Shown here one piece after another: positions 434-62,245 of a stretch of DNA of 64,000 nt. The notes beneath the pieces are model-generated. The model was not told the DNA's origin and ran no database searches. It worked only from the letters and a program-made list of their open reading frames with translations. How positions within the stretch are numbered: the stretch's first letter is position 1; every line of letters starts with the position of its first letter. Made by a program: the position numbers and the translations under genes. This DNA comes from Herbiconiux solani NBRC 106740 (lineage in GTDB: Bacteria; Actinomycetota; Actinomycetes; Actinomycetales; Microbacteriaceae): NCBI RefSeq assembly GCF_001571005.1, contig NZ_BCST01000004.1, forward strand, positions 310,001-374,000, written 5' to 3'.

Positions 434-489
434 CGAGAAGTCACTTTTACGTCCAAGACGCGAGGTTTTGACGTGAAAGTGACTTCTCG
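434..489. repeat. GAGAAGTCAC inverted-repeat element, copy 1
   Basis: Two 20-base arms (434-453 and 470-489) are complementary except for one T/C difference that still allows a G-U pair; they enclose a 16-base loop. The same arm sequence (CGAGAAGTCACTTTTACGTC and close variants) recurs at 55293, 61100 and 62184 in the same orientation. The element sits between two converging genes, 24 bases after the uricase stop and 7 bases beyond the stop of the leftward membrane-protein gene, so it could also act as a two-way terminator. It has no U-tract. Confidence 0.85.
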
Positions 490-496
490 ACGACGG

Positions 497-1162
497 TCAG
501 CGGAGGATCGAAGGGAGAAGCAGCCCTGCCGAGGCGGCCGAGTACGCCACCCACATCAGCGGTGATGCGATCCACCCGACGACGATCCACCGCCAGGACC
601 CCGTGCGCGTGGCCACCGCGTGCCGCTCGAGCGCCATGATCCGCCCGGAGTACAGCTGAGGCATGTTGACCGCGATCGTGACGATCGCGCCGGCGGTGAT
701 CGAGCCGGCGAGCACCCACACCGGGAATGCCGGGCCGCTCGAGACGATCAAGCTGGTCCCGATCGATCCGAGACCGACGAGCACCAGCAGGCCGAGGAGC
801 ACGACAGCCAGCACGAGCGATGCGCGTTGGGAGAAGAGCCCGAACGCCTGCACCTTCCGGTCGTACGCCGCTTGATCGGCGAGGGCGTCTCGGTCGGACT
901 GCGCATCCGTAACGCCGTCAGCAGCGCCATCGGCAGCTTCATCCGCGGGCGCGAGCGGGGTGATGAGCGCACGTCGAAGCACCCAGAGCACCAAAGCGAC
1001 AGCCGTGTACGGGATGCCGATGCACGCGATCCCGACACCGATCGGCAGGACGACGACGCCGGCGAAGACACTGGCGACCGCGCCGAGCACCATCGTCCCG
1101 GCGACCAGGAGCGCCGGCACTCTCAGAGTGGGACTCTCGAGGCGGGCCGAGATCGCCGTCAC
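497..1162 (-). CDS. hypothetical multi-pass membrane protein in purine cluster
   Basis: The 221-residue product has about five hydrophobic segments: two near residues 16-60, then near 113-135, 146-168 and 194-215. An acidic, Ala/Asp-rich loop around residues 70-95 is probably cytosolic. I recognise no family signature and no known permease motif. The start is GTG at 1162, two bases after the HIU hydrolase stop, so it is almost certainly translated from the same message (OHCU decarboxylase, HIU hydrolase, this gene). The position suggests a role linked to urate or ureide use, such as transport or membrane anchoring, but this is inference only. Confidence 0.6.
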   Translation of the reverse strand: MTAISARLESPTLRVPALLVAGTMVLGAVASVFAGVVVLPIGVGIACIGIPYTAVALVLWVLRRALITPLAPADEAADGAADGVTDAQSDRDALADQAAYDRKVQAFGLFSQRASLVLAVVLLGLLVLVGLGSIGTSLIVSSGPAFPVWVLAGSITAGAIVTIAVNMPQLYSGRIMALERHAVATRTGSWRWIVVGWIASPLMWVAYSAASAGLLLPSILR

Positions 1163-1164
1163 GG

Positions 1165-1509
1165 TCAGCTGCCTCGGTAGGTGGAGTAGGCGAAGGGGCT
1201 GAGGAGGAGGGGCACGTGGTAGTGCGCGTTCGCGTCGGCGAGCTCGAAGATGATCTGCACCTCGGGGTAGAAGGCCTTGACCTCCTGCTCGGCGAAGTAG
1301 ACGCCGGTGTCGAAGCTCACGCGGTAGCGGCCGGGATGCAGCTGCGCCGGCCCGAGCGCGTTGACCCGCCCGTCGGCGTCGGTCTCGGCCGAGGCGATCA
1401 TGACCCAGTTGCCCACCTCGTCACGCTCGAGGATGACGGGGACACCCGCCGCCGGCCGCCCGATCGTCGAGTCGAGGACGTGGGTGGTGACGTGACTGCG
1501 GTCGGTCAT
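1165..1509 (-). CDS. uraH: 5-hydroxyisourate hydrolase
   Basis: The 114-residue product has the length and both signatures of the transthyretin-like HIU hydrolases: the N-terminal THVLDSTIGRPAAGVPV, with the conserved His at about residue 10, and the C-terminal YHVPLLLSPFAYSTYRGS with His near 98 and the family-defining YRGS end. It hydrolyses 5-hydroxyisourate, the product of urate oxidase, to OHCU in the cytosol as a homotetramer. It starts with ATG 66 bases after the OHCU decarboxylase stop and is followed at once by the membrane protein gene, so the three are probably co-transcribed. No oddities seen. Confidence 0.95.
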   Translation of the reverse strand: MTDRSHVTTHVLDSTIGRPAAGVPVILERDEVGNWVMIASAETDADGRVNALGPAQLHPGRYRVSFDTGVYFAEQEVKAFYPEVQIIFELADANAHYHVPLLLSPFAYSTYRGS

Positions 1510-1575
1510 GCGAGCTCCTGTCGGTCGGGGTGGTGGATGCGGCGGGTCGGGGCGGTAGCGGCCGGCCCGGGCAGG

Positions 1576-2163
1576 TCAGGCGGGGTAGAGGGAGCGGAGG
1601 CGGAGCATCGTGATGTCGTGCAGCTCACTCGCGACCGTGGCGGCCTCGGCGGCGTCTGAGAGGGTGAGGCGGCGCTCCAGCTCGGCGAGGATCTCGGCCC
1701 GGCCCCGCCCGGCGGCCCGGATGAGGAAGACCCGATCGAACCGCTCCTCGTAGGCCTGATTGCCGCGGGTGATCGCGTCGGCGAGGGCCTCGTCGCTCGC
1801 CTCGGCGGCCGACTGCTCGGACGCACTGAACCGCTGGGCCTGACCGTCGCCCACCGCACGCTCGCCAATGCGGGGGTGGTGGGCGAGCGCGGCATCCACC
1901 TCGGCCGGGGTCAAGGTCGCCGCCACACGATCGGCGACCGCCAGCAGCTCGGCCGCCGACGCGAACGGCGCCGCCGCCGCGACCTCCTCGACGAACCGCT
2001 CGACCCCGAGGCACGAGTGCAACGCCTCGCGCAGCTCAGGCCCGTCCACGATCGTCTTCGCGCCCGGCCCGGCAACGACGGAATGGGCGACGGGGGCGGC
2101 GGGGGCGGATGAGCGACCCGAAACGGGCGAAGTCGGGCTGCCGGATGCACGGGGGTCGGCCAT
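1576..2163 (-). CDS. uraD: OHCU decarboxylase
   Basis: The product decarboxylates 2-oxo-4-hydroxy-4-carboxy-5-ureidoimidazoline to S-allantoin. Family motifs are present: HHPRIGE near residues 95-101 with the catalytic His, and GNQAYEERF followed by VFLIRAAGR near 134-153. From ATG 2163 the protein is 195 residues and begins with about 38 residues of low-complexity Ala/Ser/Pro sequence that the family does not need. A GTG at 2049 would give about 157 residues, starting just before the conserved region. The longer start leaves almost no room for a promoter before the divergent neighbour, so the shorter start deserves consideration. Gene order uraD-uraH-membrane protein suggests one operon. Confidence 0.92.
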   Translation of the reverse strand: MADPRASGSPTSPVSGRSSAPAAPVAHSVVAGPGAKTIVDGPELREALHSCLGVERFVEEVAAAAPFASAAELLAVADRVAATLTPAEVDAALAHHPRIGERAVGDGQAQRFSASEQSAAEASDEALADAITRGNQAYEERFDRVFLIRAAGRGRAEILAELERRLTLSDAAEAATVASELHDITMLRLRSLYPA

Positions 2164-2186
2164 GACCCCAGCTTACGATGAGGGCC

Positions 2187-2801
2187 ATGGACTCCCCCGC
2201 CCCGGCACCCCGCCTCACGGGCCTCCTCCTCGCCGCGGGCGCCGGTCGCCGGATGGGCGGTCCCAAGGCCTTGGTCGCGCCGGCCGGCGAGGATCCGTGG
2301 ATCGTCCGCAGCGCCCGCCTGCTGCTGGCGGCCGGCTGCGACGAGGTGGTCGTCGTGCTCGGAGCCGAGGCCACAGCCGCCGAGGCCCTCCTGCGCCGCC
2401 AGGTCCCGGCCGGCAGCGCTGCACTCCGCACCGTCGTCGCCGAGGCCTGGTCCGACGGACTCGGCGCGTCCCTCCGTGCGGGCCTCACCGCCCTCCTCAA
2501 CGATCCGCCGGCCGCCGTGCTGATCACCCTCGTCGACCTCCCGTGGCTGAGGGTCGAGGCCGCCCGCCGGGTGCTCGAGCACGGCGGTGCTCCGCACCCC
2601 CGCTCGCTGCGTCAGGCGATCTATGGGGGCCGCCCCGGGCATCCGGTGCTCGTCGGCGCCGACCACCTGGGCCCGCTGGCCGCCTCCCTCGAAGGAGACG
2701 TCGGAGCCCGGCCGTACCTCGCCGCGCACGGCGTCGAGCTCGTCGACTGCAGCGACCTCGGCGGCGGCGACGACGTCGATGAGCTCCCGCCGCGCAGCTG
2801 A
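2187..2801 (+). CDS. MobA/MocA-like molybdenum cofactor nucleotidyltransferase
   Basis: The roughly 204-residue protein opens with the nucleotidyltransferase signature LLLAAGAGRRMGGPKAL, continues with a DEVVVVLG strand and a VDLP metal-binding motif, and ends with GRPGHPVL and DVGARPYL segments typical of MocA/CoxI-associated cytidylyltransferases. These enzymes convert Mo-molybdopterin to the dinucleotide form used by xanthine dehydrogenase family enzymes. That fits a purine cluster, although no xanthine dehydrogenase lies in the window. A TACGAT -10 box at 2174-2179 lies seven bases before ATG 2187, so a leaderless message from 2187 is likely; an in-frame ATG at 2178 overlaps that box and is less likely. 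Confidence 0.85.
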   Translation: MDSPAPAPRLTGLLLAAGAGRRMGGPKALVAPAGEDPWIVRSARLLLAAGCDEVVVVLGAEATAAEALLRRQVPAGSAALRTVVAEAWSDGLGASLRAGLTALLNDPPAAVLITLVDLPWLRVEAARRVLEHGGAPHPRSLRQAIYGGRPGHPVLVGADHLGPLAASLEGDVGARPYLAAHGVELVDCSDLGGGDDVDELPPRS

Positions 2802-2874
2802 GACGGCCCTGAGCCTTTCCGACGAATTATGGATGCACGGGAAGAGACCCGCCGCGACGCGCGTTGACCCCCGC

Positions 2875-3528
2875 ATGACTGCAACAGGACTCACGACCAT
2901 CGGTTTCATCGGCTCCGGCAACATCGGCAGCCAGCTCGCCCGCCTCGCCGTCGCGCACGGCTACCGGGTGGTGATGAGCAACTCACGCGGACCCGAGACG
3001 CTCTCCGACCTCGTCGCCGAGCTCGGACCGCAGGCCAGCGCCGGCACCGCCGCCGAGGCCGCTGCGGCCGGGGATCTCGTCGTCGTGACGGTGCCGCTGA
3101 AGAACTACCAGCAGGTGCCGGTCGAGCCGCTCGCCGGCAAGATCGTGATCGACACGAACAACTACTACTGGGAGCGCGACGGCCGCATCCCCGCTCTCGA
3201 AGAGGGCAAGACCACCGTGTCCGAGATGCTGCAGGAGCATCTCCCCACCTCGCGCGTCGTCAAGGCGTTCAACAACATCATGGCGGCCGACATCACCACC
3301 GACGGCAAGCCGGCCGACGACGCCGACCGCCGGGCGCTGCCGATCGCGGGTGACCAGGTCGAGGCGAAGGCGGTCGTCGCGACCCTCCTCGACGAGTTCG
3401 GCTTCGAGGCCTTCGACACCGGTTCGCTCGCCGACAGCTGGCGCTTCGAGCGCGACCAGCCCGCCTACGTCGTCCGCATGACCGCCGCCGACCTCCCCGG
3501 CAAACTGGCCGCCGCCACCCGCCCCTAG
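2875..3528 (+). CDS. NADPH-dependent F420 reductase-like oxidoreductase
   Basis: The 217-residue product is a compact Rossmann protein with the nucleotide-binding motif GFIGSGNIGSQLA at residues 10-22. Later segments VVTVPLKNYQQVP, VIDTNNYYWERDG and VVKAFNNI are characteristic of the Fno/NADP_oxidored_F420 family, which moves hydride between NADP and F420 in some members. Other members are F420-independent, so the substrate is not certain. The start at ATG 2875 places the GxGxxG motif normally; an in-frame ATG at 2830 would add 15 residues. The gene follows the MobA-like gene by about 70 bases. F420 biosynthesis genes elsewhere in the window make an F420-linked role plausible. Confidence 0.8.
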   Translation: MTATGLTTIGFIGSGNIGSQLARLAVAHGYRVVMSNSRGPETLSDLVAELGPQASAGTAAEAAAAGDLVVVTVPLKNYQQVPVEPLAGKIVIDTNNYYWERDGRIPALEEGKTTVSEMLQEHLPTSRVVKAFNNIMAADITTDGKPADDADRRALPIAGDQVEAKAVVATLLDEFGFEAFDTGSLADSWRFERDQPAYVVRMTAADLPGKLAAATRP

Positions 3529-3583
3529 CCGACCCGACAAACGCAACGGGCCCTTCTCGACCACCCAAGGTGACGGCGTGGCC

Positions 3584-3658
3584 GTGGCTCGCGACCGCAG
3601 GCCGCGAGCCACGACCGCACCGGAACATGCCGCCCGCGCCGGGCAGGGACCGGCGCGG
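3584..3658. terminator. two adjacent hairpins between converging genes
   Basis: Arms 3584-3593 and 3603-3612 (GTGGCTCGCG/CGCGAGCCAC) pair perfectly over 10 bp; arms 3634-3642 and 3650-3658 (CCGCGCCGG/CCGGCGCGG) pair perfectly over 9 bp. Both lie between the stops of the Fno-like gene (+) and the RpiR gene (-). No U-tract is present, as is common in actinobacteria. A bidirectional terminator is the simplest reading. Confidence 0.6.
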
Positions 3659-3669
3659 CACCAGCACAG

Positions 3670-4512
3670 CTACTCCAGCTCCCCGAGCTCCTCGTAGAGC
3701 GAGTTGATCGCCGCCACCCGCGTGCGACTCTCGCGGGGCCGCGCGCTCAGCACGTTGCTCGCCAGGAGGTTCACCAGGCTCATCGCGCTGGCGTAGCTGT
3801 CGAGGGCGCTGACCGAGTCGATGGGGCATTCGATCCACACGCTCGCGAACTCGGCGTAGCGGCGGGCCGAGGCGTCGCCGATCAGCACGACCGCGGTTCC
3901 GGTGGCGGCGATCGCGGCGATCATCGCCCCGAACCCAGCCGTGCGCCGACGGAACCCGAACACCACCGCGGCGTCCCGTGCATCCCGGTCGGCGAACTCC
4001 TCCGAGATCGTCTGACCGGGCTGCGGCGCCAGGTGCACCGCGCCCCGCGCCTGGGAGAGCTGCTCGCGCAGGTGCACCGCGAGCGGGTACCCGTTGCGGA
4101 GCCCGACGACCGTCACACTGCGGCTTCGCAGCAGCAGCTCGGTGGTCTGCTCGAGGCGCTCGGGCCCGAGCGCGTCGAAGCACCGCCGCAGGTTCTCGAC
4201 CTCCCGCACCAGGTGCGCACCGAGATCGGCCGACGACCCGGGGGTCGCTCCCCCGACGGGAACGCCGGACGACCGCAGCGTCCGCGCATGCTCCCGCACC
4301 TCCTGCGCGTTCTCGAAGCCGAGCCGCCGGAACAGCCGCGACACCGTCGCCTTCGACACCCCGCTGCGCTGCGCCAGCTCGGTGCCCGAGTAGACTGCGA
4401 GGTCGCTCAGATGATCCAGGATGAAGTCGGCCGCCCGCTGCTCCTGCGGCGAGAGCTCGCCGTAGCTGCGGTCGATCCGCCGGTCGATCCGTTGGCCGTC
4501 GCGCACCGTCAT
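3670..4512 (-). CDS. RpiR-family transcriptional regulator (MurR/RpiR, SIS domain)
   Basis: The 280-residue protein has an N-terminal RpiR helix-turn-helix (GTELAQRSGVSKATVSRLF, residues 43-61) and a C-terminal SIS phosphosugar-binding-like domain (about 115-255) with SVTVVGLRNGYPLA and GTAVVLIGD. It starts with ATG at 4512, overlapping the allantoate amidohydrolase stop by four bases, so the two are translationally coupled. RpiR regulators are often encoded with purine/ureide catabolic genes. Here it probably controls the unit starting at about 7012, where two matching operator-like sites lie (7027-7069). The frame stays open far upstream, but that extension is the antisense-like shadow of the next gene. 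Confidence 0.88.
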   Translation of the reverse strand: MTVRDGQRIDRRIDRSYGELSPQEQRAADFILDHLSDLAVYSGTELAQRSGVSKATVSRLFRRLGFENAQEVREHARTLRSSGVPVGGATPGSSADLGAHLVREVENLRRCFDALGPERLEQTTELLLRSRSVTVVGLRNGYPLAVHLREQLSQARGAVHLAPQPGQTISEEFADRDARDAAVVFGFRRRTAGFGAMIAAIAATGTAVVLIGDASARRYAEFASVWIECPIDSVSALDSYASAMSLVNLLASNVLSARPRESRTRVAAINSLYEELGELE

Positions 4513-5780
4513 CGCTCCGCCGCGCCCGCCGCATCCGCCAACGCAAGAACCGCCCGCTCGAACGCATCGATCGTCGCCGCCACGTCGGCCTCGGTCACCC
4601 GCTCCTCGGGATTGTGGCTGACCCCGCCCTCGCAGCGCACGAACAGCATGCCGATCTCGGTGATCTCGGCGACGGCCATGGCGTCGTGCCCGGCCTTCGA
4701 GAACAGCGACATCGGCCGACGGTCGCCGGTCGAACGGATGCCCTCGCCGATCACCTTCCGCATCCGCTCGCTGCACACCGCCGCGGGGGCCGAGTGCGTC
4801 TGCACGCTCGTCCACTTCAGGCGCCGCTGGCGGCAGACGTCGGTGAGCATCTCCTGGACGACCCCCCAGACCCGGTCGCGCTCGCTGTCGTACTCGCCGC
4901 GCAGGTCGAGACTGAACTCCACCTCGCCCGGGATGACGTTGACCGCATCCGGCCGCACCTCCAGGTGCCCCACGGTCGCGATGAGCTGCGCCGCGCGCGC
5001 GATCCGCTCGATCGCGACGATGGCCTCGGCGGCCCCGGCCAGCGCATCCCGTCGCCGCTCGTAGGGGGTGCCGGAGTGCCCTGCCTTGCCGGTGATCGTG
5101 ATGAGGAAGCGGCGGGCGCCGGCGATCGAGGAGACGATGCCGAGCGCCTTGTCCTCGTCCTCGAGGTACGGGCCCTGCTCGATGTGGGCCTCGAGGTAGC
5201 CGACGAAGTCCGAGCCGGGGCGGGCCGCGTCGCCGACCCTCTCGGGGTCGAGCCCGAAGTCGAGGAAGGCCTGCCGGAGGCTCACGCCGTCTTCGTCCTG
5301 CAGCTCCCACCACGCCGGATCCCAGGTGCCGGCGAAGGCTCGGCTGCCGAGCAGCGCCCGGCCGAAGCGGGTGCCCTCCTCGTCGGCCCACGCGACGACC
5401 TCGATCGCGAACGGCAGCACGCGGCCCGAGTCGCGGATGCGCTCGACCACCGCGATCGCTGCGAGCACCCCGAGGATGCCGTCGTACTTCCCCGCGGCCG
5501 GCACCGTGTCCAGGTGCGAACCGAGCAGCAGCGCGGGCAGCCCGGGCGTCGCACCCTCGAGGCGGCCGCACTGGTTGCCGGCCGCATCCTGCCAGGTGGT
5601 CAGGCCGGCCTGCTGCATCCACTCGGCGGCGAGCGCGTTGACCGCGGCGTGCTCGGGCGAGAGGTTGACCCGCTCGATCAGCCCGTCGTCGCGCGAGGAG
5701 AAGGTGGCGAGCAGCTCGCAGCGCTCGAGGAGGGCGGCGGCCGTGGTGTCGGCCGGCAGGATGCGCGAGGGCTCGGTCAC
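4509..5780 (-). CDS. allC: allantoate amidohydrolase (M20 family)
   Basis: The 423-residue protein carries the full set of M20/AllC metal and substrate motifs: GSHLDTVPAAGKYDG (His 89, Asp 91, Asp 100), WADEEGTRFG (Glu 134/135), HIEQGP near 200, GHSGTPYERRRDAL for the dimer domain, SKAGHDAM and GVSHNPEE near the C-terminus (distal metal His). N-carbamoyl-amino-acid hydrolases share these motifs, but the neighbouring ureidoglycine aminotransferase and uricase genes favour allantoate. It hydrolyses allantoate to ureidoglycine, CO2 and ammonia. The GTG start at 5780 overlaps the upstream aminotransferase stop by four bases, and the stop overlaps rpiR, so all three are coupled. Confidence 0.9.
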   Translation of the reverse strand: MTEPSRILPADTTAAALLERCELLATFSSRDDGLIERVNLSPEHAAVNALAAEWMQQAGLTTWQDAAGNQCGRLEGATPGLPALLLGSHLDTVPAAGKYDGILGVLAAIAVVERIRDSGRVLPFAIEVVAWADEEGTRFGRALLGSRAFAGTWDPAWWELQDEDGVSLRQAFLDFGLDPERVGDAARPGSDFVGYLEAHIEQGPYLEDEDKALGIVSSIAGARRFLITITGKAGHSGTPYERRRDALAGAAEAIVAIERIARAAQLIATVGHLEVRPDAVNVIPGEVEFSLDLRGEYDSERDRVWGVVQEMLTDVCRQRRLKWTSVQTHSAPAAVCSERMRKVIGEGIRSTGDRRPMSLFSKAGHDAMAVAEITEIGMLFVRCEGGVSHNPEERVTEADVAATIDAFERAVLALADAAGAAER

Positions 5781-7012
5781 AGAGCGCCCGCCCCCTGGTC
5801 GGCGTAGAGGTCGTAGGCTGCACCGACGCCACCGCCGGCCGTGACCGGCGCGCCGTGCCGCCGGAGCACCTGCTCGAGCGAGGCCAGGGTCGTGAGCACC
5901 GCATCCTTCCGCGCGTTGTAACCCATCGTGCCGATGCGCCAGACCTTGCCGTGCAGCGGGCCGAACGAGGTGCCGATCTCGATGCCGAAGTCCTCGAGCA
6001 TTTCACCCCGCACCGCGTCTCCGGTCACGCCCTCGGGGATACGGACCGCGACGACGTTGTTCATCTTCACGGCCGGGTCGCCGAACACCTCGAGCCCGAG
6101 CCCCTGCACGCCGGCGAGCATCGCGGCCCCGTGCAGGCGGTGGCGTTCGATCGCGGCGTCGAGGCCCTCCTCGACCAGGATGCGGGCGCACTCGCGCGCC
6201 CCGTAGAGCATCGTGGTGGCCTCGGTGTGGTGGTTGAGGCGCTTCTCGCCCCAGTAGTCGAAGATCATCGCGAGGTCGAGGTAGTTCGAGCGGATGCGGG
6301 TGGCGTGGATCTCGTCGGCGCTCCCTGCGATGCCGGCCTCGATGCTCTTGCGGCTCTTGATCACCTCGACCGCACGCGGCGAGAAGGTCGCGGGCGCCGA
6401 GCCCGAGGGCCCGCCGAGGCACTTCTGGAGGCCGGCGGTCACCGCGTCCAGACCCAGCGCATCCGTGTCGAAGGGGTTGCCGGCGAGGCTGGCGGTGACG
6501 TCGGTGTATAACAGCACGCCGTGCGTGGCGCAGAGCTCGCCGAGGCCCTCGAGCGGCTGGGCGACGGTCGTGCTGGTGTCGCCGTGCACGACCGCGAGCA
6601 GCTTCGGCTTGACGGTCTCCAGAGCGGTGGCGATCTCGGCCTCGGTGAAGACGGTGCCCCACTCGCGCTCGATCACGTGCACCTCGGCGCCGGCGCGCTC
6701 GGCGATCTCGCGCAGCAGGTGGCCGAACCGGCCGAAGATCGGTACGAGCACCCTGTCGCCCGGCGCGACCAGCGACACGATCGCGGCCTCGATGCCGGCG
6801 CGGGAGGTGCCGTCGATCAGCAAGGTCTGCTCGTTGGCCGTCTTGAAGACCTGGCGATACAGCGCCATGGTCTCGTTCATGTAGGCCGTCATCGCCGGGT
6901 CGTACTGGCCGACGAGCTGCGCCGACATCGCGCGGAGCACCCGCGGGTCGGCGTTGATCGGGCCGGGGCCCATCAGCAGGCGCGGCGGCGGGTTGATCGG
7001 CAGGCTGGAAAT
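5777..7012 (-). CDS. pucG: (S)-ureidoglycine-glyoxylate aminotransferase
   Basis: A class V PLP aminotransferase of about 411 residues. Visible features are PPPRLLMGPGPINADPRVL at the N-terminus, IDGTSRAG, a cofactor-binding Asp in LLYTDVTAS, the Schiff-base Lys in AGLQKCLGGPSG, and a C-terminal RIGTMGYNA. In ureide pathways such enzymes transfer the amino group of ureidoglycine to glyoxylate, giving oxalurate and glycine. Start choice is unusual. The first ATG is at 6973, but the conserved family N-terminus begins 13 codons earlier and no ATG, GTG or TTG exists between there and an in-frame stop. A perfect AGGAGG (7024-7019) lies six bases before an ATT codon at 7012-7010. I give 7012 as the likely start; 6973 is the conservative alternative. 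Confidence 0.85.
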   Translation of the reverse strand: MSSLPINPPPRLLMGPGPINADPRVLRAMSAQLVGQYDPAMTAYMNETMALYRQVFKTANEQTLLIDGTSRAGIEAAIVSLVAPGDRVLVPIFGRFGHLLREIAERAGAEVHVIEREWGTVFTEAEIATALETVKPKLLAVVHGDTSTTVAQPLEGLGELCATHGVLLYTDVTASLAGNPFDTDALGLDAVTAGLQKCLGGPSGSAPATFSPRAVEVIKSRKSIEAGIAGSADEIHATRIRSNYLDLAMIFDYWGEKRLNHHTEATTMLYGARECARILVEEGLDAAIERHRLHGAAMLAGVQGLGLEVFGDPAVKMNNVVAVRIPEGVTGDAVRGEMLEDFGIEIGTSFGPLHGKVWRIGTMGYNARKDAVLTTLASLEQVLRRHGAPVTAGGGVGAAYDLYADQGAGAL

Positions 7013-7026
7013 GACGGACCTCCTCG

Positions 7027-7069
7027 GAACGGACGTTTCTCAACACTCATCTTACGAAACGAACGTTTC
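7027..7069. promoter_or_regulatory. two operator-like sites upstream of pucG-allC-rpiR
   Basis: GAAACGAACGTTTC (7056-7069) has 6-base complementary arms around a 2-base centre. GGAACGGACGTTTC (7027-7040) repeats it at 12 of 14 positions, 29 bp away, which is close to three helical turns. The pair lies between the amidase stop (7089) and the AGGAGG of the aminotransferase gene, where an operator for the co-encoded RpiR protein would be expected. Protein binding is inferred. Confidence 0.55.
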
Positions 7070-7088
7070 AGCGGTGTTTCGCCGTCGG

Positions 7089-11092: not shown

Positions 11093-11099
11093 GCTTCAG

Positions 11100-12152: not shown

Positions 12153-12153
12153 G

Positions 12154-12873: not shown

Positions 12874-12887
12874 CTTTCAGGAAGTCG

Positions 12888-13708: not shown

Positions 13709-13728
13709 CGCGAGATTCTACCCGCGGT

Positions 13729-16126: not shown

Positions 16127-16210
16127 GTCGATCCGGGTGTGGTTTTCGATTCCGTCGCCTTTGAGCGTCGCTCAACCGAAGACGGAATCGGAAACCACAC
16201 CCGGATCGAC
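16127..16210. repeat. 84-base nested palindrome
   Basis: Thirty-base arms (16127-16156 and 16181-16210) pair with a single mismatch. The 24-base loop holds a smaller hairpin, TTGAGCG-T-CGCTCAA (16161-16175). It begins 16 bases after the stop of the substrate-binding-protein gene (leftward), so it could act as a terminator or RNA-stabilising structure that lets the solute-binding protein be made in excess. Confidence 0.8.
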
Positions 16211-29535: not shown

Positions 29536-29850
29536 CTCCGCGGCCTGTCTTGGTTCCGCGCCGCCGCCTCTGCGGCGCGGGCGACATGTGAGGGTGCGGT
29601 CGAGCCTTGCGGCCTACGGTCGCAAGCCTCGGCCGCGCCCTCACCCTGGGTCGTCGGGTACGGCCCGCGGCCCCGGCCCGGCCCCCGGCCGCCGGGACGC
29701 GCGGCAACGACGAACTGGCGACCGCCGGGACGCGCGGCAACGACGGAGTTCCTATCGCTCCGCTGCATCCGACGGAGCGAGAGCCCGTCGGGAGCCGCGG
29801 GCTCCGTTGTTGCCGCCTCTTCAGGCGGGGGCGACGGAAGCTGCCGGGGG
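29536..29850. repeat. 315-base gene-free region packed with palindromes and direct repeats
   Basis: Between the converging cofD and ABM genes I see no credible gene. The region holds a GC hairpin (29556-29564 with 29572-29580); a nested palindrome (29588-29605 with 29627-29644, 15 of 18 pairs, inner stem CTTGCG/CGCAAG); a 22-base direct repeat beginning GCCGGGACGCGCGGCAACGA (29691-29712 and 29724-29745); and a second nested palindrome (29735-29748 with 29802-29815). It probably includes terminators for both genes. Confidence 0.7.
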
Positions 29851-32269: not shown

Positions 32270-32326
32270 CGACCCGTCAGTTCTGGTCGCTATTACGAGT
32301 GGATAGCGACCAGAAGTGACGGGTCG
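32270..32326. repeat. palindrome with 24-base arms downstream of glpK
   Basis: Arms 32270-32293 and 32303-32326 pair with one mismatch around a 9-base loop. The element lies 27 bases past the leftward glpK stop and before the guanine deaminase gene, so it could end the glycerol operon transcript. It has no U-tract. The arm sequence (CGACCCGTCAGTTCTGGTCG) is not seen elsewhere in the window. Confidence 0.75.
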
Positions 32327-33883: not shown

Positions 33884-33930
33884 TTCAAACTCCTTTGTCT
33901 TGCTGGATGTCTAGTGGGGTATTCACGGTG

Positions 33931-33963
33931 CCGGGATGCGCACACCAGACGTGCGCATCCCGG
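33931..33963. terminator. 13-bp perfect hairpin between glpF and glpK
   Basis: Arms CCGGGATGCGCAC (33931-33943) and GTGCGCATCCCGG (33951-33963) pair perfectly around a 7-base loop. It lies 13 bases after the glpF stop and 47 bases before the glpK start. It could be a partial terminator or an mRNA-stabilising hairpin that sets different levels of GlpF and GlpK. Confidence 0.6.
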
Positions 33964-33976
33964 TACCGCACTCAGA

Positions 33977-40187: not shown

Positions 40188-40340
40188 TGCACGAACGGGC
40201 TGTAGATCGTCTTCACGCATGCAATACGCACGTCTGAGTGCGATCTTCAGCCCATTCGTGCAGGGTGCCTTTCCGAACGGGCTGCTGAGAGTGCTCAGGC
40301 GTGCAATACGCACGCAAAGGCGCGCTCAGCAGCCCGTTCG
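40188..40340. repeat. two tandem nested palindromes with a shared TGCAATACGCACG core
   Basis: Unit 1: arms 40188-40209 and 40241-40262 pair with two mismatches. Unit 2: arms 40274-40289 and 40325-40340 pair perfectly (16 bp), and the loop has an inner stem GCGTGC-AATAC-GCACGC. Both units have arms related to CGAACGGGCTG and both loops contain GCAATACGCACG, so they are diverged copies of one element. They lie between the converging YidC-like gene and cofE. Confidence 0.8.
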
Positions 40341-51504: not shown

Positions 51505-51518
51505 CTCCCCGCGCGCTC

Positions 51519-52889: not shown

Positions 52890-52956
52890 TAGTTCACCTG
52901 CACTGTCTGTTTGACGATTTCTCTCGCGTGACCGCCTGTTGTGGTGGCGGCCCCCG

Positions 52957-53553: not shown

Positions 53554-53558
53554 GGTTC

Positions 53559-55052: not shown

Positions 55053-55097
55053 GTCGGTGTGTCCTTCGGGGAGTAGGGGGTCAGCCAACGACAAACT

Positions 55098-55135
55098 CCG
55101 CGACGAGGGAGGCCTGGAACTAGGACTCGTCGCGG
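55098..55135 (-). promoter_or_regulatory. candidate attenuator hairpin in the leuC leader
   Basis: CTCGTCGCGG (55126-55135) and CCGCGACGAG (55098-55107) are perfectly complementary over 10 bp with an 18-base loop. In the leftward transcript the first arm is the coding sequence immediately after the Leu codons of the leader peptide, and the peptide stop lies in the loop. A ribosome paused at the Leu codons would cover the first arm and prevent the hairpin. Confidence 0.6.
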
Positions 55136-55164
55136 CACCGAAGAAGAAGCCGACCGAACAGCAC
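55120..55164 (-). CDS. leuC leader peptide (leucine attenuation)
   Basis: A 14-codon frame ([17 protein letters not shown] to TAG) lies 68 bases upstream of leuC. It has four Leu codons, three in a row and all CTT, a rare Leu codon in this GC-rich genome. TACGAT at 55176-55171 lies six bases before the GTG, so the message would start at the peptide start codon. The overlap with a perfect hairpin is what a ribosome-mediated leucine attenuator needs. Leu leader elements are known before leu genes in actinobacteria. The call is inferred from these features. Confidence 0.6.
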
Positions 55165-55176
55165 CCGTCGATCGTA

Positions 55177-55292
55177 CCACCGCCCCTCCGCCGCCCCTGG
55201 GAGCGCGCGCCCGCGTCCCCGCCCGCGCGCATACCGCCCCGCCCGCGTCCCCGCCCACCTCCGCCTCGCGCGCATCCACCCCACCCCCACTT
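55177..55292. other. GC-rich, C-rich spacer upstream of the leuC leader promoter
   Basis: This is a strongly biased stretch (runs of CCCCGCCC, with CGCGTCCCCGCCC occurring twice). I see no gene. It separates the leuC leader promoter from repeat element copy 2. Confidence 0.5.
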
Positions 55293-55354
55293 CGCCGAGA
55301 AGTCACTTTCACGTCCAAATTCCCGATCTTGGACGTAGAAGTGACTTCTCGGCG
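55293..55354. repeat. GAGAAGTCAC inverted-repeat element, copy 2
   Basis: Arms 55293-55317 and 55330-55354 (25 bases, two mismatches) enclose a 12-base loop. It lies 30 bases past the leftward terC stop. The left flank CCCCCACTTCG matches the left flank of copy 3, so the conserved unit extends beyond the arms on that side. Confidence 0.85.
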
Positions 55355-55384
55355 GAGGTGGGAGAGGGCGCGAGGCGGGCCGGG

Positions 55385-56386
55385 CTAGGGCTTGGGCGCC
55401 GGGTCGGGGGTGCGGGCGGCGCGACGGCGCATCGCCACGAGCGACGCGATCGTCGCCACCGCCATCGACCCGATGATCACCGCGAGACTCGTCCAGGTGT
55501 CGATCTCCGGCGCCCATTCGATCGGGTGCCCGCCGTTGATGAACGGCAGCTCGTTGGCGTGCATCGCGTGCAGCACGAGCTTCACGCCGATGAACGCGAG
55601 GATGAACGCGATCCCGTAGTGCAGGTAGATCAGCCGGTCGAGCAGGCCGCCGAGCAGGAAGTAGAGCTGCCGCAGCCCCATCAGCGCGAACACGTTCGCC
55701 GTGAACACGATGAACGGCGACTGCGTGATGCCGAAGATGGCCGGGATGCTGTCCAGCGCGAAGAGCAGGTCGGTCGAACCGAGGGCGATGAACACGATGA
55801 TCATCGGCGTCCAGAGCTTCTTGCCGCCGATCGTCGTGCGGATCTTCGCGCCGTCGTAGTCGTCCGAGATGTCGATCCGCTTGCGCAGGAACTTCACCAG
55901 CCGGTTGTCGTCCCCGCTCTCGTCCTCGTTGCCGAAAGCCTGCCGCCATGCCGTGAAGAGCAGGAACGCGCCGAAGATGTAGAAGATGAAGCTCAGCGAC
56001 TCGATCAGCTGGGCGCCGATCACGATGAAGATCCCGCGGAGCACCAGGGCGATGATGATGCCCACCATCAGGGCTTCCTGCTGATATTTCCGGGGCACCT
56101 TGAAGCGCGCCATGATGATGACGAACACGAAGAGGTTGTCGATCGAGAGGCTGTACTCCGTCAGCCAGCCGGCCAGGAACTGGCCCGCGTGCTCCCCGTC
56201 GGCGATCAGCAGCATCACCAGTGCGAACACCAGGGCGAGCCCGACGTAGAAGACGACCCAGAGCGTGGCCTCCTTGATCGAAGGCACGTGCGGCCGCTTG
56301 AAGGCGAGGATCAGGTCGCCGGCCAGGATCAGCACGAGCACGACGAGCGAGATGATCTCGAAGGCCAGGGGCAGTTCGATGTTCAC
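55385..56386 (-). CDS. TerC/Alx-family integral membrane protein (metal exporter)
   Basis: The 333-residue protein has about nine membrane helices and TerC hallmarks: the acidic intramembrane motif [49 protein letters not shown] and [18 protein letters not shown]. Members export Mn2+ or load it onto secreted enzymes, and some relate to tellurite resistance. GTG 56386 is preceded by GAAAGG at five bases. A probable Mn2+-sensing riboswitch lies directly upstream, which supports a manganese role. Confidence 0.92.
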
Positions 56387-56395
56387 GAGAACCTT

Positions 56396-56548
56396 TCAGG
56401 ACTGGTGTGCAGGCAGCACGGAACCCTGAAAGTCTCTCCCGCGATCGCCCGTGCCGCTTGGCTCGGATGATCGCCGCCGCCCCCGGGAGCCCGACGACGG
56501 ACTCCGTGATGACGATGACAGCGAGGTGGGATACTCCCCTTCACCGGC
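56396..56548 (-). ncRNA. yybP-ykoY manganese riboswitch upstream of terC
   Basis: In the leftward transcript the leader contains AAGGGGAGTATCCC (GGGGAGTAT at 56539-56531), then TCGTCATCACGG, and closes with GAGACTTT (56436-56429). These are the conserved loops and 3' strand of the yybP-ykoY (Mn2+) aptamer, which typically precedes TerC/Alx/MntP genes. The 3' strand CTTTCAGG is complementary to CCTGAAAG, which overlaps the terC ribosome-binding site, giving a plausible translational on-switch: metal-stabilised aptamer frees the site. The 3' boundary is approximate. Confidence 0.75.
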
Positions 56549-56583
56549 AATGCTACAGCCGTGGGAGCACCCACCCGCGCGGG

Positions 56584-57348
56584 TCAGCGGCGGCCGAGCT
56601 CCTCCCGGAAGTCGGCACGCAACTCGTTCAACTGCTGCTTCAGCCGGGCGACGAGCTGGGGGTCGAGCCCCGTCGCGCCCGTCGAGGCCTTCCTCAGGTC
56701 GACGCGCAGCTGCTGGCGGAACTCCGACAGCGCGGCATCCGCATCCCGGAGCGCCGCGGCCGAGTCGGCGCGGCCTGTGGGCGCCCAGCCGGTTCCGGAT
56801 GCACGGGGCCCGGTTCCGGATGCGCCGCCGGTCGACGCGCCCTCGGTTCCTGCAGCGCCGGATGCTCCCGAAGCGCCCGCAGAGCCCGAAGCGCCCGGCG
56901 CCCCGGCAGCCGCTGCAGCAGCCGCCGCCTTCGCGGCCTTGGCCGACGATTTCACCGTGCCCCGTGCATCCCGAGCAGCCGACGCCAAGTCGGCCTTTAG
57001 GCTCTTCATCGCCTGGTTGACGCCCGAGCGCACCTCGTCGGCGAGGCGGCGGACCGAGTCCGACAGCTCCTCCTCGATGTCGTCGAGCTCGCCGCGCCGG
57101 GACTCGAGTTCGGCGCGCCCGGCGTCCGTGATCGCGTAGACCGTCTTGCGGCCGTCGGCGGTCTTGGTGACCAGGCCCTCCTCCTCGAGCTTCGCCAGGC
57201 GGGGGTAGATCGTGCCGGCGCTCGGGCTGTAGGTGCCGCCGAAGCGTTCGGACAGCGCCTGGATCAGCTCGTACCCGTGCTTGGGCGACTCGTCGAGCAG
57301 GCTCAGGAGGTAGAGCCTCAGGTGGCCGTGGCCGAAGACCGGGGTCAT
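56584..57348 (-). CDS. PadR-family transcriptional regulator
   Basis: The 254-residue protein has a PadR winged HTH at the N-terminus (GHGHLRLYLLSLLDESPKHGYELIQALSERFGGTYSPSAGTIYPRLAKLEEEGLV, about residues 6-60), a coiled region, then an Ala/Gly/Ser-rich linker (about 125-195) and a helical C-terminus. Its start overlaps the DUF4097 stop by four bases. It likely represses this two-gene unit through the repeats at 58329-58372. Confidence 0.88.
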   Translation of the reverse strand: MTPVFGHGHLRLYLLSLLDESPKHGYELIQALSERFGGTYSPSAGTIYPRLAKLEEEGLVTKTADGRKTVYAITDAGRAELESRRGELDDIEEELSDSVRRLADEVRSGVNQAMKSLKADLASAARDARGTVKSSAKAAKAAAAAAAAGAPGASGSAGASGASGAAGTEGASTGGASGTGPRASGTGWAPTGRADSAAALRDADAALSEFRQQLRVDLRKASTGATGLDPQLVARLKQQLNELRADFREELGRR

Positions 57349-58310
57349 GCCGGCGCCCCCTCGCCGGTGACACCGGTCTCGTCGAAGGACGGGCCGGTGG
57401 AGCCGGACGTGCCGGCCGAGCCGGACGTGCCGGCCGAGCCGGACGTGCCGGTGGCGCTGGAGCCGGTCGACCCGGCACCCTCGAACGACGGCCCGGGCGC
57501 CGCGGCCTCGGCCGGCTCGCGGAAGACGACCGTGATGTCGCCCGAGACCGAGTTCGCCCTGAACTCGGTCCACTGCCCGTCGAGCGGCCCGGTGGTGCCG
57601 TTGTAGCCGCCGCCACGGAGGCCCTTGATCGTCGAGGCGCCCAGCTGCAGCACGCCCGAGACCGAGTTGACGTTGTAGCGCGCCGAGACGTCGGACTCGA
57701 GGCGCACGGTGAAGTCGCCCGAGACGGTGTTGTTCTCGATGTCGCTCGGCACACCCGTGCTGTCGACGAAGACCTCGGCCGAGACGCCGTCGGCCGAGAA
57801 GCGGCGGATGGCGCCCGAGGCGGCGATGTCGCCCGAGACGGTGTGCGCGCTGACGAGCCCGGTGTGGTCGCGGATCGAGATCTCGCCGCTGACGCTGTTC
57901 ACGTCGAGATCGCCGACGACCGAGTCGACGACGACGTCGCCCGTGACCGTGCTGATGCGCGCATCCGTCGTCAGGCCCGAGATGAGCGCTGACGCCGAGA
58001 TCACGCCGAACTTCAGCGCCGCGTCCCGCGGGACCATGATGCTGATGTCGACCCGCGCGTTGCCGCGCCACGACTTGAAGACCTCGATGAAGTTGTCCCA
58101 GCGCAGCTGCGGGTGGTCGATCTCGAGACGGTCGCCGTCGATCGAGATCTTGAGGTCTTTCCCGGTCACCGAGTGCACCTCGATGCGGGCTCCGGGCTCG
58201 TCGTGCCCGATCACGTCGATCTGGCCGGCGATCAGCCCGATCTTGACCGAGCGGACGAGCTCGAGGTCGATCACCTTCGGACCGTCGACGATCCATTTCT
58301 CCATAACCAC
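57345..58310 (-). CDS. DUF4097-family beta-repeat protein
   Basis: The 321-residue protein is a DUF4097/DUF4098-type protein: an N-terminal module followed by a run of short parallel-beta repeats with recurring SVSGD/TVTGD motifs (TVTGDVVVDSVVGDLDVNSVSGEISIRD), ending in a Gly/Ser/Thr-rich tail with an 18-base tandem repeat in the DNA (57400-57451). No signal peptide is visible. Such proteins are often encoded with PadR regulators in stress-type operons; the function is unknown. AGGAGA supports GTG 58310; ATG 58304 is an alternative. Confidence 0.85.
   Translation of the reverse strand: MVMEKWIVDGPKVIDLELVRSVKIGLIAGQIDVIGHDEPGARIEVHSVTGKDLKISIDGDRLEIDHPQLRWDNFIEVFKSWRGNARVDISIMVPRDAALKFGVISASALISGLTTDARISTVTGDVVVDSVVGDLDVNSVSGEISIRDHTGLVSAHTVSGDIAASGAIRRFSADGVSAEVFVDSTGVPSDIENNTVSGDFTVRLESDVSARYNVNSVSGVLQLGASTIKGLRGGGYNGTTGPLDGQWTEFRANSVSGDITVVFREPAEAAAPGPSFEGAGSTGSSATGTSGSAGTSGSAGTSGSTGPSFDETGVTGEGAPA
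57400..57451. repeat. 18-base tandem repeat in the DUF4097 gene tail
   Basis: Three near-exact copies of GAGCCGGACGTGCCGGCC encode repeated Gly-Thr-Ser-Gly-Ser-Ala in the C-terminal tail. The unit keeps the frame, so copy number can vary. Confidence 0.8.
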
Positions 58311-58328
58311 GATGCTCTCCTGCCTGAA

Positions 58329-58372
58329 ACGCGTTATATCGCGTCTGCGATGAGAATCACGATATATCGCGT
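58329..58372. promoter_or_regulatory. PadR operator candidate upstream of DUF4097-padR
   Basis: TATATCGCGT occurs at 58335 and 58363, 28 bases apart. The first lies in a near-palindrome ACGCGTTATATCGCGT (58329-58344), the second in ACGATATATCGCGT (58359-58372) containing the perfect palindrome CGATATATCG. AT-rich inverted repeats like these are typical of PadR sites. They lie 19-62 bases upstream of the DUF4097 start and probably overlap its promoter. Confidence 0.6.
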
Positions 58373-58448
58373 TCGCGACGGCGTCAAGATGAAGGGAGGT
58401 GAATGGATGCGCGGCCGATTGGATGCGCGGCTGAGCGCGCGAGCGGCC

Positions 58449-59171
58449 TCAGCCCGCGTGCGCGGTCATGAACGGCATCGGGTCGTACCGCACGCCGTCC
58501 GAGCCGTAGAGCTCGAAGTGCGTGTGCTCGGTCGTCGCGTTGCCCGTGCGGCCGGTGAGGCCGATGACCTGCCCGGCGGTGACCCCGTCGCCGACGCCGA
58601 CCGTCAGCGAGTCGGTCTGGAAGTGCATGTACATGCTGCAGACGGCCTGGCCCTCGACCTTGTGCGCGATCGAGAGGTAGACGCCGCCCGTGCCGCCGTC
58701 GCCCGAAGCGGCGATGACCACGCCGTCGGCGATCGCGTGCACCGGCACGCCCGGCGCGTTCAGCATGTCGACGCCCTTGTGGAAGCCCTCGGCCCGCGGG
58801 CCGAAGCCGTCGCTCATCCGGAAGCCGTCGGGATAGGGCCAGGAGAAGGCGGTCGCCTCGGGCGCCGCGTCGGAGCCGGCCTGACACTGCGCCCCGCCGT
58901 ATCCGCCCTGGCTCGCGGCGGTCACGGCCTTCGGGGTGGGCGTCGGCGTGGGAGTGGGCGTCGGGGTGTTGATCGTGTACGCATCCCGCGACACCGCGGG
59001 CCCCGCACCCTCGACCGCGTCGAAGGACTGCGCCCCGCCGGCGACGATCTGCACGTCGGCGTCGAAGTTGTCCGGAGTGGTGAGAGAGGCCGCGGGCACC
59101 GAGGTGGCCACGGCGACACCGAACACGAACGTCATGGCGACGACGCCGAGCACAGTGCCTTGGTACTTCAT
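58449..59171 (-). CDS. M23-family peptidoglycan endopeptidase (LytM-like)
   Basis: About 240 residues. It has a signal/anchor helix (about 8-28), a Thr-Pro linker (TPTPTPTPTP, about 70-80) and a C-terminal LytM domain: FGPRAEGFHKGVDMLNAPGVPVHAIADGVVIAASGDGG with metal His and Asp, YMHF, and TTEHTHFELY with the HxH pair. It would cut peptidoglycan cross-links outside the membrane. ATG 59171 follows GGGAGA by nine bases; ATG 59180 is in frame. It is divergent from the GH15 gene. Confidence 0.88.
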   Translation of the reverse strand: MKYQGTVLGVVAMTFVFGVAVATSVPAASLTTPDNFDADVQIVAGGAQSFDAVEGAGPAVSRDAYTINTPTPTPTPTPTPKAVTAASQGGYGGAQCQAGSDAAPEATAFSWPYPDGFRMSDGFGPRAEGFHKGVDMLNAPGVPVHAIADGVVIAASGDGGTGGVYLSIAHKVEGQAVCSMYMHFQTDSLTVGVGDGVTAGQVIGLTGRTGNATTEHTHFELYGSDGVRYDPMPFMTAHAG

Positions 59172-59303
59172 TCGGCCCATTCTCCCGTCGTTGCCGCGGC
59201 AGCACAACCGGGCGGCCGCGCACCACCGATTGCGCGGATGCGCTCTCGGCGACCTCCCAGCCCCGGTGACGGCTTCCGCTTCACGGCAGGGCAGAATCAG
59301 CAC

Positions 59304-61082
<1,779 letters not shown>

Positions 61083-61099
61083 CTCCCCATCCCCCACTT

Positions 61100-61161
61100 C
61101 GCCGAGAAGTCACCTTTACGTGCAAATCCCGGGTTTTAGACGTGAAAGTGACTTCTCGACG
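61100..61161. repeat. GAGAAGTCAC inverted-repeat element, copy 3
   Basis: Arms CGCCGAGAAGTCACCTTTACG and its complement (CGTGAAAGTGACTTCTCGACG) flank a loop ATCCCGGG. It lies 17 bases after the GH15 stop and 75 bases before the DUF559 gene. The frame of the DUF559 gene is open through this element, but the first in-frame ATG inside it (61120) has no ribosome site. Confidence 0.85.
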
Positions 61162-61236
61162 GTGTGGAGAGGGGGATTCATCCACAAGTTGGGGCGAGGG
61201 GGAACGTTCGGGCCGAGGAATGGTGAGCATGGGGGC

Positions 61237-62229
61237 ATGCCTCGTGTCGTCAGCCTCCCGCCCCGGTTCTCGGGAGCGCCGTTTCTGGCATCCGAGGCGG
61301 TTGCCGCCGGGCTCGGACGGGAGCGGCTCCGTGGCCGGGATCTGAGCGCTCCGTTCCGCGGGGTGCGGGTCGCCGAGTCCGCGCGAGATGGTGAGGGGCT
61401 GGCTTTCCTCGAACGGTGCCGGGCACTCCAGCTACTCCTCGGGCCTGAGGATGCGTTCAGCCACGTCACGACGGCGCGACTGTGGGACGTCCCGCTCCCC
61501 CGGCGACTCGAGGGCGAGCATCCACTGCACGTCGCCACTCGGCGACCGGGGACGCGCACCCGTTTGACCGGCACCGTGGGACATACCTTGGCGGCCGATG
61601 CGGAGTTCGCCGAGCGCTTCGGGCTCTCCGTCACCGATCCCGCCGCGACGTGGATGGCGCTGGCCGCTTTCCTTCAGCCCATCGAACTCGTCATCGCGGC
61701 GGATCATCTCGTCCTGACGCCGCGCGTGCAGGATCCGGTCGACGAGCGTCCGTTCGTGCCGCTCCCGATGCTCGTGGATGCGGTGCGCCGGCACTCCGGA
61801 CGGCATATCCGGGTGCTGCGGTCGGCGGTCGAGCTGGTGCGGGACGGGGCGGAGTCCGCACAGGAGACCCGGCTTCGGCTGGCGCTGGTGGATGCTGGGC
61901 TTCCCGAACCACTCCTGAACGTCGACGTCACGGATGCACGGGGCCGTTTCCTCGGCCGCGGGGACATGGTGTACCCGGAGTGGGGCGTGATCGTCGAGTA
62001 CGACGGCGACCACCACCGAACGGATGCGCGCCAGTACGACAAGGACCTCACCCGTCACGAGGCTTTCACTCTCTCCGGTTGGCGCCACGTCCGCGTGCGC
62101 CGCTTCGGCATGGCCGAGGGACCCACCTCGGGAGTCGCCCGCACCGAGGCCGCCCTCCGCTCGGCCGGGTGGCGTCCGGGCCGCGTCGAGAAGTCACCTT
62201 TACGTCCAAATCCCGCGGGGTGGACGTAA
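61237..62229 (+). CDS. DUF559-domain protein, Vsr-like nuclease fold
   Basis: The 330-residue protein has an N-terminal part similar to the AbiEi-antitoxin-like/type IV TA N-terminal region of such proteins (about 1-130: FLERCRALQLLLGPEDAFSHVTTARLWDVPLPRRL) and a C-terminal DUF559 domain of the PD-(D/E)xK/Vsr type: Glu 210, RFLGRGDMVYPEWGVIVEYDGDHHRTDARQYDKDLTRHEAF, with Asp 243, Glu 254, Asp 256 and His 259/260. It could cleave DNA. It is bracketed by element copies 3 and 4, and copy 4 encodes its last 15 residues and stop. Confidence 0.78.
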   Translation: MPRVVSLPPRFSGAPFLASEAVAAGLGRERLRGRDLSAPFRGVRVAESARDGEGLAFLERCRALQLLLGPEDAFSHVTTARLWDVPLPRRLEGEHPLHVATRRPGTRTRLTGTVGHTLAADAEFAERFGLSVTDPAATWMALAAFLQPIELVIAADHLVLTPRVQDPVDERPFVPLPMLVDAVRRHSGRHIRVLRSAVELVRDGAESAQETRLRLALVDAGLPEPLLNVDVTDARGRFLGRGDMVYPEWGVIVEYDGDHHRTDARQYDKDLTRHEAFTLSGWRHVRVRRFGMAEGPTSGVARTEAALRSAGWRPGRVEKSPLRPNPAGWT

Positions 62230-62245
62230 AAGTGACTTCTCGACG
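62184..62245. repeat. GAGAAGTCAC inverted-repeat element, copy 4
   Basis: Arms 62184-62208 and 62221-62245 (25 bases, one mismatch) around the loop AATCCCGCGGGG. The DUF559 stop codon (62227-62229) lies in the right arm, so the gene's last 15 codons are element sequence. Same orientation as the other three copies. Confidence 0.87.

What the first reader, a model, noticed from the sequence alone, without database searches (positions are those of the whole stretch)
434..62245. A four-copy, same-orientation inverted-repeat element (GAGAAGTCAC family)
Copies at 434-489, 55293-55354, 61100-61161 and 62184-62245 share arms (GAGAAGTCAC[T/C]TTTACGTCC and its complement) and a partly conserved loop (CAAATCCCG in three). 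Substitutions in the arms mostly keep pairing (G-U or compensated), which suggests selection on the fold or recent spread. All four lie 3' of genes and point the same way. This looks like a dispersed miniature repeat family, possibly one that doubles as terminators, comparable in logic to paired uptake sequences or REP elements, but I know of no named family with this sequence.
Basis: partly seen in the sequence, partly recalled or inferred. Interest (0 to 1): 0.72.

Follow-up and report, generated by a model that had tools for sequence, protein, structure and literature searches.

The report
A nuclease gene and its palindromes
The four repeats are copies of a 54-base palindrome that also brackets a nuclease gene in this window, and many related nuclease genes in other actinobacteria are each bracketed by a palindrome of their own sequence, which looks like an unrecognised mobile element and its scattered short offspring.

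Summary
In detail: four 54-bp inverted-repeat cores lie at 435-488, 55297-55350, 61104-61157 and 62188-62241, and the genome (genus Herbiconiux) has about 43 such places. Two readings change. Within this family the arms do not covary (pairing is below all 500 shuffles), and because the element is symmetric it has no orientation. The main result is that two of the four copies bracket one gene (61237-62229), which encodes a Vsr/EDxHD-like nuclease domain after an AbiEi-like region. Of 73 testable relatives from named genomes, 58 carry a matching palindrome pair scoring above every one of 67 null windows. Each gene has its own 'dialect': left and right half-sites agree at 19.8/22, against 10.1/22 between genes (28 genes). 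The dialect of this genome's second such gene is also scattered, as is a Promicromonospora dialect in its own genomes. Five sister genomes have nothing between the two genes that flank the window unit. I read it as a mobile unit [palindrome-nuclease-palindrome] with non-autonomous single palindromes settling at gene 3' ends. It works like REP/RAYT but with an unrelated enzyme. Movement by the nuclease is inferred, not shown.

The parts
435..488 (.). single (dispersed) palindrome, dialect 1, between convergent genes
55297..55350 (.). single (dispersed) palindrome, dialect 1, 34 bp from the 3' end of a minus-strand gene
61104..61157 (.). left (upstream) palindrome of the unit, 21 bp after the GH15 stop and 79 bp before the nuclease start
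61237..62229 (+). nuclease gene, 330 aa; AbiEi-like region (by relatives) plus MTES_1575/DUF559 (Vsr/EDxHD-like) nuclease domain; its stop codon lies inside the right palindrome
62188..62241 (.). right (downstream) palindrome of the unit
61083..62260 (+). whole unit palindrome-nuclease-palindrome (right border approximate), absent between the same two genes in five sister genomes
59304..61082 (+). left neighbour, glycosyl hydrolase family 15 (start as called by my own gene finder)
62332..63549 (+). right neighbour, phosphate transporter (PHO4/PiT)
32271..32325 (.). fifth palindrome of the same 55-bp build but another dialect (GACCCGTCAGTTCTGGTCGC), like the one beside a Herbiconiux ginsengi homologue (L178)

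Best explanation
The repeat is the terminal and target palindrome of a small mobile unit of about 1.1 kb: palindrome, nuclease gene, palindrome. The palindrome is two inverted half-sites of about 20 bp around a free centre of 12-14 bp. The protein's AbiEi-like N-terminal region probably binds one half-site per monomer, and its Vsr/EDxHD-like domain cuts or nicks there, allowing the unit or the palindrome alone to be copied or moved. Single palindromes are non-autonomous offspring, or scars left when a unit is lost. They survive mainly between convergent genes, where a hairpin is harmless or useful as a terminator. SHOWN: bracketing of many related genes by matching palindromes, gene-specific dialects, dispersal of several resident dialects, a site without the unit in five sisters and one without a single palindrome in a sister, placement at 3' ends. 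INFERRED: binding, cutting, and that the nuclease causes the spread.
For: Of 73 testable homologues (of 80 named loci), 58 carry a matched left/right palindrome pair above all 67 null windows; 4 of the 58 pass by one point. At a stricter cut 28 have both sides, 25 one side, 20 none; background is 0.0145 per 250-bp window, and 0 of 29 control loci have one within 250 bp. Left and right half-sites agree at 19.8/22, against 10.1/22 between genes; the own partner is best or tied in 27 of 28. Prospective test: the second homologue in this genome has dialect CCGTCACAAANCGCCC, which turned out to be scattered (32/37 hits with up to 2 mismatches, reversed control 4/3; 27 places with the exact pair spacing by my count of the listing, 2 of them the gene's own pair). 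A Promicromonospora dialect occurs 7 and 3 times in its two genomes and 0 times in nine others. GH15 and PHO4 are adjacent in five Herbiconiux genomes with no unit or palindrome between. A single palindrome in G209 is missing from sister G203, flanks 92-95% identical. One copy lies in frame inside an MFS gene. Placement: 22 of 35 own copies are between convergent genes, none between divergent ones; in other genomes 23 of 35 chosen, none divergent. The model (pLDDT 94.4) best matches Vsr (prob 0.98) and, at rank 14, homing endonuclease I-Bth0305I (prob 0.91). A PADLOC AbiEi model matches 20 of 56 members, and AbiEi is reported to bind two 23-bp inverted repeats (PMC7319586, passages). Protein distance tracks half-site distance (Mantel r 0.397, 0 of 999).
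Against: No transposition, binding or cutting was observed. No target-site duplication was seen. In one of two sister comparisons of single copies the site holds a different hairpin rather than being empty, so replacement is as likely as insertion. A related nuclease gene with GAGAAGTC-type palindromes lies about 6 kb from the PHO4 gene in G200, one of the five genomes without the unit, so a local rearrangement is not excluded there. G011 and G207 carry scattered palindromes of a dialect for which I found no resident gene, and G209 carries one such orphan dialect. 15 of 73 homologues show no pair above the nulls. Foldseek E-values do not pass 0.001 (best 0.043), the window protein is below Pfam cut-offs and itself matches no PADLOC model. 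The Mantel signal could be shared descent alone.
Confidence: 0.56

Rival explanations
1. Homing variant. The nuclease is a free-standing selfish endonuclease that cuts at or near palindromes, and repair from the unit-bearing copy converts sites. Units home among slots that already hold a palindrome; single palindromes are targets and deletion scars rather than transposed copies.
For: Structural similarity to the EDxHD homing endonuclease I-Bth0305I. Fixed slots are reoccupied by different alleles: L177 and L182 have 95.4% identical flanks up to both stop codons but 49% identical proteins and different palindromes. L212 sits inverted in a slot shared with other Curtobacterium loci.
Against: Homing to a like palindrome does not explain how about 43 unrelated sites acquired one, nor a unit where five sisters have no palindrome. 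Allele swaps change the dialect, which homing to a matching site would not do.
Confidence: 0.2
2. Regulatory or conflict cassette. The upstream palindrome is the operator of an AbiEi-like autoregulated gene and the downstream one its terminator. The cassette is exchanged by ordinary recombination as a defence or toxin-like locus, and scattered copies are extra operators or terminators.
For: AbiEi proteins autoregulate through promoter inverted repeats (passages of PMC7319586). The upstream palindrome centre lies about 90-190 bp before the gene in most loci. Fixed slots with fast allele exchange resemble defence loci.
Against: Does not explain a matching copy downstream, nor dozens of copies at 3' ends of unrelated genes and none between divergent genes where operators belong. 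The half-site of this dialect is absent from viral contigs in one exact-pattern scan.
Confidence: 0.15
3. Plain transcription terminators that became alike by gene conversion; the link to the nuclease is secondary.
For: 3'-end placement and very stable hairpins on both strands.
Against: Terminators need no fixed 54-bp sequence; control genes have no such palindromes within 250 bp (0 of 29); arms do not covary within the family; dialects go with nuclease genes.
Confidence: 0.05

Closest known systems
REP/REPIN elements and RAYT (TnpA-REP)
   Same: Enzyme gene associated with palindromes, dispersed extragenic palindromic units, paired inverted halves with spacer, clusters, genome-specific sequence.
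   Different: The enzyme is not an HUH/Y1 transposase but an AbiEi-like/Vsr-like fusion; no GTAG/CGTC tag seen; halves are not themselves palindromes; many unlike dialects, each tied to one gene.
EDxHD homing endonucleases (I-Bth0305I) and Vsr
   Same: Among the closest solved folds of the C-terminal domain.
   Different: I-Bth0305I sits in an intron (recalled); here a free-standing gene lies between two palindromes that are also dispersed.
AbiEi antitoxins (type IV TA, AbiE)
   Same: AbiEi-type models match many members; AbiEi binds two 23-bp inverted repeats (PMC7319586, passages).
   Different: A nuclease domain is present; an AbiEii (DUF1814) partner was not looked for; palindromes are on both sides and dispersed.
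MITEs / insertion sequences
   Same: Autonomous unit plus short non-autonomous relatives sharing ends.
   Different: Ends are complete palindromes, not terminal inverted repeats; the protein is not a known transposase type; no target duplication seen.

Membership tests
REP/RAYT | gene flanked by palindromes also dispersed outside genes | tested here: met
REP/RAYT | RAYT is an HUH (Y1) transposase | tested here: not met
   domain, fold and conserved residues are Vsr/EDxHD-like; a search for a separate HUH gene in this genome was not run
REP/RAYT | GTAG or CGTC tag beside the palindrome | tested here: not met
   by eye, half-sites share no such tag across dialects; the tags are known to me from the title of PMC3733652 (listing)
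EDxHD homing endonuclease | Vsr-like EDxHD nuclease fold | tested here: inconclusive
   prob 0.91 to 3r3p and 0.98 to 1cw0, but E-values 0.52 and 0.043
EDxHD homing endonuclease | cleaves an allele lacking the element and is copied in | not testable with these tools
   needs biochemistry; sites without the unit exist
Type IV TA antitoxin AbiEi | AbiEi-type sequence | tested here: inconclusive
   PADLOC AbiEi model PDLC02249 matches 20 of 56 members (best 9.1e-14), but not the window protein
Type IV TA antitoxin AbiEi | operon with DUF1814 toxin | not tested
   the neighbours of the window gene are GH15 and PHO4; the other homologues were not checked
MITE / IS | target-site duplication | tested here: inconclusive
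   none visible at the window unit or at the two G209/G203 sites, but the borders are not clean
DNA uptake sequences | many single copies of one short motif | tested here: not met
   half-sites of this dialect are nearly all paired
Rfam families | match at gathering score | tested here: not met
   0 matches in the window

The most novel reading that the evidence does not exclude
A large unrecognised class of actinobacterial mobile elements has independently reached the REP/RAYT way of life with a restriction-like enzyme. AbiEi-Vsr fusion nucleases recognise gene-specific 54-55 bp palindromes through a fast-changing N-terminal region, spread them to gene ends, and replace one another with their palindromes at fixed chromosomal slots, leaving orphan dialects behind.
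Probability: 0.48. Interest if true: 0.92.

Novelty: categorically new. Interest (0 to 1): 0.84.

Why it matters
It would give a new route by which bacterial genomes fill with palindromes, a natural library of protein-to-DNA-site pairs (each gene carries its own site on both sides) for learning how AbiEi-type domains read DNA, and an independent case to test why short palindromes settle at gene ends.

Tried and rejected
Rejected: RNA-fold selection inside the family, uptake sequence, known Rfam RNA, viral target sites (0 viral contigs with the exact half-site pattern). Plasmid and phage collections gave only 4 and 1 weak protein matches. A first idea that DUF559 genes in general lie beside this dialect failed: PF04480 found two other genes in this genome, and within 500-600 bp of them only one weak dyad (16 of 22) was seen. 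The MFS insertion cannot be bounded exactly because the loop is variable in orthologues. The exact dialect pattern was absent in 198 other genomes of the family, which is why a relaxed model was used. Some of that model's weak hits in other species, such as L092 in G201, have another build and are probably unrelated hairpins. Paper searches that gave nothing linking this protein family with palindromes: (listings and abstract starts). I read passages only of PMC3116915, PMC3710099 and PMC7319586. The library holds open-licence papers only, so absence from print is not shown. Coevolution along the protein is weak: partial r at most 0.19, at residues 41-80.

Limits of the counts: the gene finder is my own and simple; I chose 35 copies by hand from the fetched loci, leaving out loci with no strict palindrome or weak model hits. 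In some searches the 29 control loci include four genes found as two pieces, and two loci at contig ends (L162, L257) whose gene borders were set wrongly; one search shows no strict palindrome anywhere in those two, and only two in all 29 loci: one inside a gene (L261) and one 283 bp beyond a gene (L156).

Full report
Observation. The four copies are real: each has a 54-bp core with 10-bp outer arms GAGAAGTCAC/GTGACTTCTC. The window lies in a 3.85-Mb genome in 18 contigs. The arm occurs 32 times on each strand (reversed control 1 and 0), and the strict pair 25/24 times, always 54 bp. In 32 fetched loci I read 35 complete copies. A model built from them gives 86 strand-matches in this genome and matches in 11 of 15 other Herbiconiux genomes. 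Of the loci printed, most have the same 54-55 bp build with a species-specific sequence; some weak ones, such as L092, do not.

Not a selected RNA fold within the family. On the 35 copies, pairing is no higher than in any of 500 shuffles, and both-side changes number 6 against 23.3 expected. Between genes with unlike dialects the arms do covary: the outer 20 columns pair in 85% of cells, against 46% when arms are exchanged between genes (58 upstream palindromes). So symmetry is kept over long times but not base by base within a copy population. This fits two protein half-sites better than an RNA stem, although the hairpins are very stable.

Placement. With my own simple gene finder, 22 of 35 own copies lie between convergent genes, 13 are scored as tandem and none lie between divergent genes. 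Of neighbouring gene pairs, 7 of 62 in the window and 47 of 213 in the fetched loci (those with copies included) are convergent. One 'tandem' case is really inside an MFS gene, in frame, adding residues to a variable loop. In other genomes, of 35 copies chosen by hand, 23 are convergent, 8 tandem, 3 inside a predicted gene, 1 at an edge and none divergent, against 36 convergent and 29 divergent of 151 neighbouring pairs in those loci; two of the copies flank a nuclease gene.

The gene. Two of the four window copies bracket the gene 61237-62229, whose stop codon lies in the right copy. The window protein is below Pfam cut-offs, but 44 of 56 aligned relatives match MTES_1575 and 32 of 56 match DUF559 at E 0.01, and a PADLOC AbiEi model matches 20 of 56, though not the window protein. 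Invariant residues include S207, E210, R214, D243, E254, Y255, G257, H260 and D270. The AlphaFold model is confident (pLDDT 94.4). Its best solved-structure match is Vsr (probability 0.98, E 0.043); the homing endonuclease I-Bth0305I is at rank 14 (0.91, E 0.52).

Bracketing is general. All 16 Herbiconiux genomes have homologues. Of 30 loci scanned at a strict threshold, 16 have palindromes on both sides close to the gene. Of 73 with enough flank, 28 have both sides, 13 upstream only, 12 downstream only and 20 none; the background in the same loci is 0.0145 per 250-bp window. Of 29 control loci (PHO4 and MFS orthologues, four genes in two pieces), none has one within 250 bp. With a pair score that also uses left-right likeness, 58 of 73 exceed every one of 67 null windows, 43 of them by five points or more. 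In the 28 strict cases left and right half-sites agree at 19.8 of 22, against 10.1 between genes, and the own partner is best or tied in 27.

Prediction tests. If the gene owns the palindrome, the second homologue of this genome should have its own scattered dialect. It does: 32 and 37 hits with up to 2 mismatches, against 4 and 3 in the control. By my count of the listing 27 places have the exact pair spacing, 2 of them the gene's own pair; several single half-sites also occur, often in clusters. In a different family, the Promicromonospora dialect occurs 7 and 3 times in its two genomes, some of these being the genes' own pairs, and 0 times in nine others. In G155, G200, G203 and G208 a scattered dialect matches a resident gene. 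Against this, in G011 and G207 the scattered GAGTGGTCACTTT dialect has no resident partner that I found. G209 has both a matching gene and orphan copies of the dialect of its sister G203.

Movement. Between GH15 and PHO4 this genome has the unit. Of eight close PHO4 orthologues, five (G200, G207, G201, G011, G204) have GH15 adjacent without unit or strict palindrome; in three (G208, G206, G210) GH15 was not found beside it. In G200 a relative of the window gene, with GAGAAGTC-type palindromes, lies about 6 kb from PHO4. The single copy at L121 in G209 is missing from G203, which has 24 bp there where G209 has 164, with 92-95% identical flanks. At L116 the G203 slot holds a different hairpin. 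At a fixed slot, L177 and L182 have 95.4% identical flanks up to both stop codons but 49.4% identical proteins and different palindromes. In Curtobacterium L212 the cassette is inverted relative to shared flanks. No target-site duplication was seen.

Mechanism. AbiEi is reported to bind two 23-bp inverted repeats (PMC7319586, passages); here the element is two half-sites of about 20 bp. Protein and half-site distances correlate (Mantel r 0.397, 0 of 999 permutations, 58 genes), slightly more in residues 41-110 than in the nuclease part; shared descent alone could give this. I infer that the N-terminal region reads the half-site and the Vsr-like domain cuts, so that the unit and single palindromes spread. 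Homing and autoregulation remain rivals.

Comparison. It works like REP/RAYT, in which palindromic doublets are dispersed outside genes and REP sequences are associated with RAYT genes (PMC3116915, passages), but it is not a member, because the enzyme class and the tag are not met. I found no paper in this library that links the protein family with palindromes. PMC3710099 (passages) describes MTES_1575 as a Vsr-type domain in a larger fusion protein. I call it categorically new because no known element family with this enzyme was found, and I keep the probability near one half because movement by the nuclease is inferred.

Noticed in passing
window 32271-32325: A fifth palindrome of the same build in another dialect (21 of 22 arm matches), like the one beside a Herbiconiux ginsengi homologue.
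   Followed up: partly
L281 (centre 526), L282 (551), L283 (528), L284 (589), L054 4967-5125, L078 6560-6690: Further dialects in the same genome (for example GAGAAGTCAGAAAGACGTCC, GAGACGTCACTTGTTGTCGC), possibly fossils of earlier units.
   Followed up: partly
G000 C3:355797-356860, C3:440622-440865, C11:55875-56151, C8:478-775: The second dialect forms clusters of palindromes at roughly 100-250 bp spacing; some lie near contig ends and may have broken the assembly.
   Followed up: no
L222, L225, L234 (Paenarthrobacter/Arthrobacter): Downstream of the homologue, repeated alignments offset by about 72 bp suggest an array of palindrome-like repeats.
   Followed up: no
flanks of the 35 own copies: DNA left of the core is C-rich and right of it G-rich for tens of bases, extending an imperfect palindrome.
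   Followed up: partly
L212 against L202, L209, L214, L220, L232, L233, L238, L243 (Curtobacterium and an unnamed Microbacteriaceae): One chromosomal slot holds different nuclease alleles in different genomes, once in the opposite direction.
   Followed up: partly
window 3571-3625, 16127-16210, 29589-29643, 33920-33974, 40280-40334: Other intergenic hairpins of unrelated sequence, probably ordinary terminators.
   Followed up: no
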